From Thermococcus guaymasensis DSM 11113 (GTDB taxonomy: Archaea; Methanobacteriota_B; Thermococci; Thermococcales; Thermococcaceae): 64,000 bases of DNA. The position numbers and the translations under genes are program-made. The notes below the pieces were generated by a model. The model did not search any database. It had not been told where the DNA came from and saw only the letters and a program-made list of their open reading frames with translations. Every line of letters begins with the position of its first letter. The stretch's first letter is position 1. Shown here piece after piece: positions 6,579 to 54,254 of the stretch. The DNA is taken from assembly GCF_000816105.1 (NCBI RefSeq), contig NZ_CP007140.1, forward strand, positions 1,266,388 through 1,330,387. The letters run 5' to 3'.

Positions 6579-6646
6579 AACTCGGGACGATGACGAGAAA
6601 GCACCTCCACTGAGAGCCAATGCTGAGACGCCCACGGTCGGAGTCC

Positions 6647-45445: not shown

Positions 45446-45508
45446 AAATGTGCCCTCCCCGACCGTCCCCCGCTCACCTTTCACGGGGGTGTGAGAGGGG
45501 AGGGCGGT
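45446..45508 (-). ncRNA. H/ACA box guide RNA
   Basis: Read on the minus strand: a 9-bp lower stem GCCCTCCCC (45505-45497) / GGGGAGGGC (45460-45452) is followed directly by ACA (45451-45449) and three more bases. Inside, an internal loop with strands TCTCACA and ACGGTC flanks an upper stem CCCCC/GGGGG capped by GTGAAAGGTGAGC, which fits the K-loop pattern GUGA-N4-UGAGC of Pyrococcus H/ACA RNAs. The pocket lies 14-15 bases from ACA, the family rule. A TATA box TTTAAAAT (about 45534-45527) puts the transcription start at the base of the stem. The guide strands complement GACCG-UC-GUGAGA, a conserved large-subunit rRNA segment as I recall, so it probably directs a pseudouridine there. Confidence 0.85.
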
Positions 45509-52556: not shown

Positions 52557-54023
52557 ATGCGCATCCTGATCCTTGGAGGGGGGAGCATAGGGAGACAGAT
52601 TGCAGAAGCCCTCAAGGGAGAGTTTGAAATCACAATAGTGGAGAAGGACGAGCTCCGTGCGAAATCTCTTGAAGAAAGCGGTTTCAACGTGGTTCAGGGT
52701 GATTTTTCATACACCGCGATCCTGTTGAAGGCCAACATCGACAAAGCCAACGTTGTAGTGATAACCACCAGAAACCTTGAAACCGTGAAAAAGACCGTTT
52801 ACGTTATCAGAACCAACAACAAGGACGTCCCAATAGTGGCCCTACTCCCGGATGACATGCCCAAGGAGACCCTTGAGGATATAATACTCGAAGAATTTGA
52901 AAAGGAGGCCAGAATAGACTATGGCATCTATCCCCAGAAGGCCATAACCGATGCGTTCCTAAAGACGCTCTTTCAGCTCGGCGAAAAGAAGAACGCCTTC
53001 ATGCTCATGAAGAAGCTCAACGAGATAAAGGGGGAGTCCGACTCCCTGCTGATACTCACCCACAACAACCCCGATCCAGACGCGATATCTTCTGCGGTCG
53101 CACTCTCAGTTATAGCCCAGAGCGTCGGTCTTAAGACAACCATAGCCTATGGGGGGGAGATAACCCATCACGAGAACCAGGCTTTTGTAAATCTGCTCGG
53201 TATACATCTCAGACGTGTTTCCACTGGCTCTTATGAGATAAAGAAACACAGTGCAATAGCCATAGTGGATACCCAGCCGAACGGGAACCTGACTGTCCTT
53301 GAGCCGGAAGACCTTGCGAGAGTACAGATCATTATTGACCACCATCAAGTCTTCCGGCATCTCCGTGAACTCCTGCCTGAAAATGCTTTTGTGGACATAA
53401 GGGAGGATGTAAAGGCTTCCGCTTCGATATTGACGGAATACATAAAGGCTTTGAACGTTCCCATTTCGGAGACCCTTGCAACTGCCCTCTTCTACGGCAT
53501 CTACACCGACACGAAAAAGTTCTCCCAGCTCAGTCAGGTGGATCTAAGGGCCATTGAGTTCCTGGCCGGAAAAGTGAACCATGAGCTCCTTGACAGGATC
53601 GAGCACCCAGACATATCCACTGAGACGGCCGAGATACTTGCAAGGGCGATACTCAACAGGAAGGTGTATAAGAACGTAATTGTTTCAAACGTCGGGTTCA
53701 TAAGGAACAGAGACGCGCTGGCAGAGTCTGCAGACTTCCTTTTAAGGCTTGAGGGCATAAGCACGGTTCTCGTCTTTGGGATAGTCGATGACTACATAGA
53801 GATGTCGGCAAGAACGAGGGACGTCCGTGTGAATATAGGAGCAGTCATGAAGGAGGCCTTTGGAGAAATTGGGAGCGGCGGCGGCCACGCGACAATGGGT
53901 GGGGCAAGAATTTCACTTGGCCTTTTCAAGCTCGCCAAGGACAAAAATTCCCTTCTAAGGCTTGCCGAGGAAGCGATAACCGAGAAGTTCCTTGAGGCCC
54001 TTAAAATAAAGGAGCAGAGTTAG
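52557..54023 (+). CDS. TrkA-N (RCK) / DHH phosphoesterase fusion protein
   Basis: 488 residues. The first 125 residues are a Rossmann NAD-binding TrkA-N/RCK domain (LILGGGSIGRQIAEAL, IVEKDE). From about 160 a DHH phosphoesterase follows: THNNPDPDAIS (169-178), VDTQP (237-241), DHH (261-263), then a DHHA1 domain with GSGGGHATMGGA. DHH-DHHA1 proteins cleave nanoRNA, pAp or cyclic dinucleotides; an RCK domain senses NAD(H), nucleotides or c-di-AMP in K+ transport. The fusion occurs in other archaea as far as I recall; its substrate is unknown. ATG 52557 follows GGTGGTGATC. Confidence 0.88.
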   Translation: MRILILGGGSIGRQIAEALKGEFEITIVEKDELRAKSLEESGFNVVQGDFSYTAILLKANIDKANVVVITTRNLETVKKTVYVIRTNNKDVPIVALLPDDMPKETLEDIILEEFEKEARIDYGIYPQKAITDAFLKTLFQLGEKKNAFMLMKKLNEIKGESDSLLILTHNNPDPDAISSAVALSVIAQSVGLKTTIAYGGEITHHENQAFVNLLGIHLRRVSTGSYEIKKHSAIAIVDTQPNGNLTVLEPEDLARVQIIIDHHQVFRHLRELLPENAFVDIREDVKASASILTEYIKALNVPISETLATALFYGIYTDTKKFSQLSQVDLRAIEFLAGKVNHELLDRIEHPDISTETAEILARAILNRKVYKNVIVSNVGFIRNRDALAESADFLLRLEGISTVLVFGIVDDYIEMSARTRDVRVNIGAVMKEAFGEIGSGGGHATMGGARISLGLFKLAKDKNSLLRLAEEAITEKFLEALKIKEQS

Positions 54024-54178
54024 TGTGGGCCCGGCCCATCCCCCATCTTCACGGCCGGCTGAAAGCCCGCTCCGACGGTCCGGAGGAGGCGGGCCCTGTC
54101 CGCCCGGCATCGTCCACGGGACATCATCGAAGGCCCAGCCCACTCCGTCCGGCGGGCCAACCGGGCGGGACCGTCATA
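54021..54178 (-). ncRNA. GC-rich structured RNA gene, probably H/ACA type
   Basis: About 155 bases at very high GC in an otherwise ordinary gap. Minus strand: TATA CCTTTAAAATTTC (about 54208-54196), start near 54176. Domain 1: lower stem CCGCCCGG/CCGGGCGG (54168-54161 with 54107-54100) followed directly by ACA (54099-54097); inside, pocket strands TTGGC and ACGATG flank an upper stem CCGCCGGAC/GTCCCGTGG (one mismatch), and the pocket is 14 bases from ACA. Domain 2: stem GGGCCCG/CGGGCCC (54096-54090 with 54033-54027), then ACACTA; its inner fold does not fit the rule. GACGGTCC (54175-54168) can also pair with GGACCGTC (54081-54074). Plus-strand transcription is not excluded (TATA near 54002, T5 at 54184). 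Confidence 0.65.
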
Positions 54179-54254
54179 GGAAATTTTTCGGCTGAAATTT
54201 TAAAGGTTTTCCGGATATAACTGGAGGGAATGTTCTTTTGAACTCTTCATGCCG

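What the first reader, a model, noticed from the sequence alone, without database searches (positions are those of the whole stretch)
54021..54208. Very GC-rich structured RNA gene between the DHH fusion and SAM synthetase genes
About 155 bases with much higher GC than neighbours, two closing helices (8 and 7 bp), each followed directly by ACA on the minus strand, and a further 8-bp pairing (GACGGTCC with GGACCGTC) linking the 5' end to the second domain. One domain meets H/ACA geometry; the other does not, so the RNA may be a hybrid or a class not yet described. High GC in hyperthermophile intergenic DNA is a known sign of noncoding RNA.
Basis: partly seen in the sequence, partly recalled or inferred. 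Interest (0 to 1): 0.75.

Follow-up and report, generated by a model that had tools for sequence, protein, structure and literature searches.

The report
HgcE (Pab105) pseudouridylation guide RNA
This GC-rich stretch is the Thermococcus copy of an already described guide RNA (HgcE/Pab105) that directs chemical editing of ribosomal RNA; what seems new is that its extreme 5' end is complementary to the ribosome's catalytic centre, beside the site its second half is predicted to edit.

Summary
It is HgcE/Pab105 (Rfam RF00060, 60.5 bits, minus strand), over cut-off in 72 of 94 genomes of the family. It holds two H/ACA motifs, published as Pab105.1 and Pab105.2 (PMC4652768). Covariation supports the helices (18 of 28 pairs change on both sides; score 0.322 against 0.140 shuffled, 0/500). 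Motif 1 ranks 23S U2558 first, the published Pab105.1 target L2554; motif 2 ranks U2713 first.

New here, and not found in the literature I could read: the 5' leader, placed by the TATA box at the transcript start, is complementary to helix 93 of the peptidyl-transferase centre, 4-29 nt before U2713. 39 of 58 leaders have at least 9 consecutive Watson-Crick pairs there; none of 45,646 flanking 13-mers do. Two different leader types pair with opposite strands of the same helix. HgcF has a similar 13-nt leader. I infer an accessory rRNA anchor or chaperone. Transcription, binding and function are untested.

The parts
54024..54176 (-). HgcE/Pab105 RNA, leader to second ACA (true ends not mapped)
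   Evidence: Rfam RF00060 60.5 bits; 58 homologues parsed; coordinates checked
54197..54204 (-). TATA-like element TTTAAAAT of the putative HgcE promoter, about 24 nt upstream of the leader
   Evidence: Conserved at near-constant distance in all homologues; coordinates
54169..54177 (-). 5' leader (AU)GACGGUC, complementary to 23S 2684-2692 (helix 93), 7 Watson-Crick pairs plus wobbles in this genome
   Evidence: rRNA pairing in the cell inferred
54161..54168 (-). Motif 1 lower stem, 5' strand CCGCCCGG
   Evidence: Covariation
54154..54160 (-). Motif 1 5' guide strand UUGGCCC (GCCC pairs with GGGC after U2558)
54146..54153 (-). Motif 1 upper (GA) stem, 5' strand GCCGGACG
   Evidence: Covariation
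54116..54123 (-). Motif 1 upper (GA) stem, 3' strand UGUCCCGU, preceded by the K-turn UGA at 54124-54126
   Evidence: Covariation; UGA invariant
54108..54114 (-). Motif 1 3' guide strand GACGAUG (GACGA pairs with UCGUC before U2558)
54097..54107 (-). Motif 1 lower stem 3' strand CCGGGCGG plus box ACA
54090..54096 (-). Motif 2 lower stem, 5' strand GGGCCCG
   Evidence: Compensatory C-G to U-A at two pairs in 15-19 sequences
54080..54086 (-). Motif 2 5' guide strand CCUCCGG (pairs with CCGGGGG after U2713 A2714)
54074..54078 (-). Motif 2 upper stem, 5' strand CCGUC
54043..54051 (-). Motif 2 K-turn UGA and upper stem 3' strand GAUGG
54036..54040 (-). Motif 2 3' guide strand GAUGG (pairs with CUAUC before U2713)
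54024..54033 (-). Motif 2 lower stem 3' strand CGGGCCC plus box ACA, next to the stop codon of the convergent DHH gene (54021-54023)

Best explanation
The feature is the minus-strand gene of HgcE/Pab105, a two-motif archaeal H/ACA guide sRNA with its own TATA promoter, divergent from the SAM synthetase gene and convergent with the DHH-family gene. By established knowledge of the family, each motif forms an RNP with L7Ae, Cbf5, Nop10 and Gar1 that converts one uridine of 23S rRNA to pseudouridine. Motif 1 guides U2558 (P. abyssi L2554; activity published there). Motif 2 is predicted to guide U2713 (E. coli 2617). Inferred only: the 5' leader anneals to 23S helix 93 just before U2713 and anchors the RNP or holds that strand open, making up for a weak 3-5 bp pocket duplex. 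My sub-confidences: identity 0.97, motif 1 target 0.85, motif 2 target 0.65, leader pairs with rRNA in the cell 0.5.
For: Rfam hit and 72 of 94 family genomes over cut-off; covariation in both lower and both upper stems; free-register target ranking, U2558 and U2713 each first; published two motifs and Pab105.1-L2554 (PMC4652768); conserved TATA spacing; leader complementarity 39/58 with at least 9 pairs against 0/45,646 flanking 13-mers, two leader types on opposite strands of helix 93, and a 13-nt leader of the same kind on HgcF.
Against: No transcript data for this strain. U2713 is not confirmed: its 5' pocket duplex is -3 to -4 kcal/mol in most species, weaker than the -6.0 cut-off published for productive pairs with another program, and several genomes lack a detectable HgcE yet keep the U. 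Helix 93 is invariant, so leader-rRNA covariation cannot be tested. In this genome only 7 leader pairs are Watson-Crick, and the predicted fold pairs part of the leader internally.
Confidence: 0.88

Rival explanations
1. The leader complementarity to 23S rRNA is accidental or reflects another constraint on these bases, such as the transcription start region; HgcE works only through its two pockets.
For: Leader lies at the predicted start site; no rRNA variation to test pairing; a few leaders (L023, L028, L061) keep little Watson-Crick complementarity, though L028 and L061 changes are wobble-compatible.
Against: 39 of 58 leaders reach at least 9 pairs in a 37-nt stretch; shuffled leaders do so in about 0.09% and flanking 13-mers in 0 of 45,646. 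Two different leader sequences both hit helix 93, and HgcF shows the same design.
Confidence: 0.4
2. Motif 2 modifies another uridine (for instance LSU 1696, LSU 1385 or SSU 974) rather than U2713.
For: These rank next (22.7, 21.8 and 21.0 against 27.0). The U2713 pocket has a weak 5' duplex. The tested but false target S995 of Pab105.2 (PMC4652768) may be the SSU 973-974 site.
Against: U2713 leads clearly. The 5' guide CCUCCGG is a perfect complement of CCGGAGG in many Thermococcus rRNAs. The leader site adjoins it. In the one genus-g2 genome with a readable 23S, the U is replaced by C and no HgcE is detected.
Confidence: 0.3
3. A structured RNA of a class not yet described, held together by the 8-bp GACGGTCC/GGACCGTC link.
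For: The letters are complementary in the window.
Against: Rfam and literature identify the RNA as HgcE/Pab105 (PMC4652768); the link is complete only in the window and its A-U pair occurs in 1 of 39 sequences.
Confidence: 0.02

Closest known systems
HgcE RNA / Pab105 (Rfam RF00060; motifs Pab105.1 and Pab105.2)
   Same: Orthologue: Rfam score over cut-off, two H/ACA motifs, same motif 1 target (23S L2554 of P. abyssi = U2558 here).
   Different: Only clade-level differences in stems and loops. The Rfam model starts inside motif 1, so the leader and the 5' half of motif 1 are outside it; the leader here is GACGGUC instead of UCCGAC.
HgcF RNA / Pab35 (Rfam RF00058)
   Same: Multi-motif H/ACA sRNA of the same genomes with a TATA-spaced 5' leader complementary to the peptidyl-transferase centre (13 nt, 23S 2594-2606).
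   Different: Different family, targets and leader; its leader also forms a 5' hairpin with downstream bases.
Eukaryotic box C/D snoRNAs with accessory rRNA pairing (from memory and from titles; PMC5389607 not read)
   Same: Works-like comparison: extra guide RNA-rRNA pairing near the modified site.
   Different: Those guide 2'-O-methylation; here it is a 5' leader on an archaeal H/ACA RNA and has no functional test.

Membership tests
HgcE/Pab105 (RF00060) | Covariance model score over the curated cut-off | tested here: met
   60.5 bits against 50
HgcE/Pab105 (RF00060) | Orthologous guide sequences to P. abyssi Pab105, with motif 1 aimed at L2554 | tested here: met
   P. abyssi copy L047 aligned; U2558 ranked first; L2554 from PMC4652768
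Archaeal box H/ACA sRNA | Stem-pocket-stem hairpin with ANA box directly 3' of the lower stem | tested here: met
   Two motifs, ACA at 54099-54097 and 54026-54024; stems covary
Archaeal box H/ACA sRNA | K-turn or K-loop for L7Ae above the pocket | tested here: met
   UGA and GA elements conserved in both motifs; L7Ae binding not tested
Archaeal box H/ACA sRNA | About 14-16 nt between the pocket-closing pair and ANA | tested here: met
   15-16 nt in motif 1 and 14-16 in motif 2, depending on which pair is taken as closing (counted coordinates; rule from PMC4652768)
Archaeal box H/ACA sRNA | Pocket complementary to rRNA around a uridine | tested here: met
   U2558 and U2713; motif 2 5' duplex weak
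Archaeal box H/ACA sRNA | Forms RNP with Cbf5, Nop10, Gar1, L7Ae and pseudouridylates its target | not testable with these tools
   In vitro activity of Pab105.1 on L2554 published for P. abyssi (PMC4652768)
New RNA class (reader) | Conserved 8-bp link between 5' end and domain 2 | tested here: not met

The most novel reading that the evidence does not exclude
Thermococcales multi-motif H/ACA sRNAs (HgcE and HgcF) begin with 5'-terminal antisense leaders that anneal to strands of the peptidyl-transferase centre (E. coli 2498-2510 for HgcF; 2588-2596, 2601-2609 or 2603-2613 for HgcE, by lineage). Besides modifying uridines, these RNPs would anchor on and hold open the catalytic core during ribosome assembly. 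In one clade HgcE has swapped its leader to the opposite strand of helix 93.
Probability: 0.5. Interest if true: 0.68.

Novelty: new member of a known kind. Interest (0 to 1): 0.4.

Why it matters
The RNA itself is known, so the headline observation is ordinary. The leader matters because it is sequence evidence, spread over several genera, for accessory rRNA pairing by archaeal H/ACA RNAs. [quoted passage not shown] kodakarensis, where cbf5, nop10 and gar1 deletion strains exist (PMC6138745). It also shows that the Rfam HgcE model is truncated at its 5' end.

Tried and rejected
Folding energy as evidence: z-score -0.65, uninformative. Co-loss of HgcE and U2713 as a general rule: seen in the g2 genome G002, but G015, G034, G069 and G078 lack a detectable HgcE and keep the U. 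Leader-rRNA covariation: not testable, the helix 93 stretch is invariant. Overlapping 62-65-aa ORFs as the cause of conservation: not tested separately, but substitutions follow base pairing. The second own-genome HgcE hit (28.6 bits) is HgcF, and so are the weak R1 model hits in G002 and G034. The exact-motif scan of named genomes gave Thermococcus MAGs plus three non-archaeal records, taken as chance. Leaders of this kind were looked for and not seen on Pab91 and HgcG of this genome. Muller 2008, Klein 2002 and the P. abyssi transcriptome paper are not held, so an earlier mention of the leader cannot be excluded.

Full report
WHAT IS THERE. The minus strand of 54024-54176 encodes a 153-nt, 74% GC RNA. 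An Rfam scan of the window gives HgcE (RF00060, Pab105) at 54135-54007, 60.5 bits against a cut-off of 50. The family is over cut-off in 72 of 94 genomes of this archaeal family. One of these genomes has a 1,765,118-bp chromosome and gives HgcF at exactly the published P. abyssi Pab35 coordinates, 318231-318398 (PMC4652768), so the P. abyssi RNA is in the comparison. PMC4652768 splits Pab105 into motifs Pab105.1 and Pab105.2 and states that Thermococcus H/ACA genes are orthologues of the Pyrococcus ones.

ANATOMY AND COVARIATION. I aligned 39 non-redundant homologues from leader to second ACA. With lower stems of 8 and 7 bp and upper stems of 8 and 5 bp, 90.3% of cells pair (slid controls 32-50%). 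18 of 28 pairs change on both sides, and the covariation score is 0.322 against 0.140 in shuffles (0/500). UGA and GA elements of both K-turns and the GAU of the motif 2 guide are conserved. Both motifs are H/ACA. The Rfam model begins inside motif 1 and treats that half as unpaired (alignment), so the family as stored lacks the leader and the 5' half of motif 1.

THE LINKING HELIX. GACGGTCC/GGACCGTC forms all 8 pairs only in the window. Relatives with the same leader type keep 5-7; the rest have a different leader while the domain 2 half persists. That half belongs to the 5' guide and upper stem of motif 2, which explains its conservation. I reject the helix.

TARGETS. I scored both guide strands of 28 homologues against every uridine of this genome's 23S and 16S rRNA, leaving the register free. 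Motif 1 ranks U2558 first (25.1; next 23.8, a narrow lead) and motif 2 ranks U2713 first (27.0; next 22.7). U2558 corresponds to P. abyssi L2554, the published Pab105.1 target, by the +4 offset seen between T. kodakarensis and P. abyssi at 2589(2585), 2592(2588) and 2607(2603) (PMC6138745; letters checked). U2713 aligns with E. coli U2617. It is a prediction: the table of verified targets is not in the text I could read. For it: many Thermococcus rRNAs read CCGGAGG, a perfect complement of the CCUCCGG guide, and in genus g2 the one genome with a readable 23S lacks a detectable HgcE and has C at this position. Against it: the 5' pocket duplex is weak (-3 to -4 kcal/mol in most species; the published cut-off is -6.0 with another program), and several other genomes lack a detectable HgcE yet keep the U.

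THE LEADER. Homologues carry a TATA element at a near-constant distance that puts the transcript start just upstream of the motif 1 stem. The short leader there falls into two main types. Most genera have (G)CAUCCGAC, a 9-10 nt Watson-Crick complement of 23S 2699-2709. The clade of this window has (AC)GACGGUC, complementary to 2684-2692; the window's own copy, AUGACGGUC, has 7 Watson-Crick pairs plus wobbles. The P. abyssi and P. horikoshii leaders (UCCGACCUG) match 2697-2705, and other Pyrococcus have the shorter UCCGACC. All these sites lie in or next to helix 93, around A2698 (E. coli A2602) and 4-29 nt before U2713. Of 58 leaders, 39 have at least 9 consecutive Watson-Crick pairs in the 37 nt preceding U2713; 0 of 45,646 flanking 13-mers and about 0.09% of shuffled leaders do. 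The 58 are related, so they count as roughly two or three independent cases, not 58. For the main leader types this window gives the best duplex in all 4.5 kb of rRNA; it ranks second for the UGUCCGACC and UCCGGC variants. The rRNA stretch is invariant across the family apart from the g2 change near U2713, so covariation between the two molecules cannot be tested; the support is positional and from lineage replacement. In the (G)CAUCCGAC species the leader site abuts the pocket duplex, so leader, 3' guide and 5' guide together cover about 20 nt of 23S. Inference: the leader anchors the RNP or keeps the strand open, making up for the weak pocket duplex.

SAME DESIGN IN HgcF. In this genome the 5' end of HgcF, GCCGACAGCGAGG, is a 13-nt perfect complement of 23S 2594-2606 (E. 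coli 2498-2510). 22 of the 27 HgcF loci read with a complete 5' end share it exactly, and the other five differ by one change that leaves a G.U pair. In one genome (G045) the HgcF-like locus lacks it. Pab91 and HgcG here show no such leader. The HgcF site begins 5 nt 3' of U2589, an orphan pseudouridine for which T. kodakarensis total RNA supplies an unknown component. None of the P. abyssi guides tested in vitro worked there, so I only note the proximity.

SHOWN AND INFERRED. Shown by sequence: identity, two motifs, covariation, guide complementarity, leader complementarity. From literature: Pab105.1-L2554 activity in P. abyssi. Inferred: start site, U2713, leader annealing and its role.

VERDICT. 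A known guide RNA, correctly spotted, wrongly thought to be a new class. The leader is the part worth following up; I found no mention of it in the papers I could read, but the primary 2008 and 2002 papers were not available.

Noticed in passing
L002:1507-1677 minus (genome G000:C1:1640359-1640529), outside the window: HgcF (Pab35) starts with GCCGACAGCGAGG, a 13-nt perfect complement of 23S 2594-2606 (E. coli 2498-2510, peptidyl-transferase centre), conserved across the family and 5 nt from the orphan pseudouridine U2589.
   Followed up: partly
window 45449-45505 minus: Pab91 H/ACA sRNA (RF02795, 83.4 bits). Its published target L2685 is U2689 here, which lies inside the site complementary to this clade's HgcE leader, so the two RNAs may compete or act in turn.
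   Followed up: partly
window 6585-6644 plus: Box C/D sRNA sR43/sR42 (RF01128, 71.7 bits).
   Followed up: no
L134/L135 (genome G002, genus g2) 23S rRNA: U2713 and the next base are changed (UA to CU) in both 23S copies, and no HgcE is detectable in this genome.
   Followed up: partly
L171 (genome G059): Divergent HgcE whose motif 2 has lost the CUCCGG guide; looks like a decaying copy.
   Followed up: no
L055 (genome G012, 1,716,818 bp): HgcE motif 1 has different guide strands (GCCCC / GGACAC) and so perhaps another target, while motif 2 and the leader are kept.
   Followed up: no
L021 and L020 (genomes G029, G041), motif 1: L021 has motif 1 shortened to a K-loop (GGGAGCAAUGAACGGG); L020 has a deletion that removes the motif 1 5' guide.
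   Followed up: no
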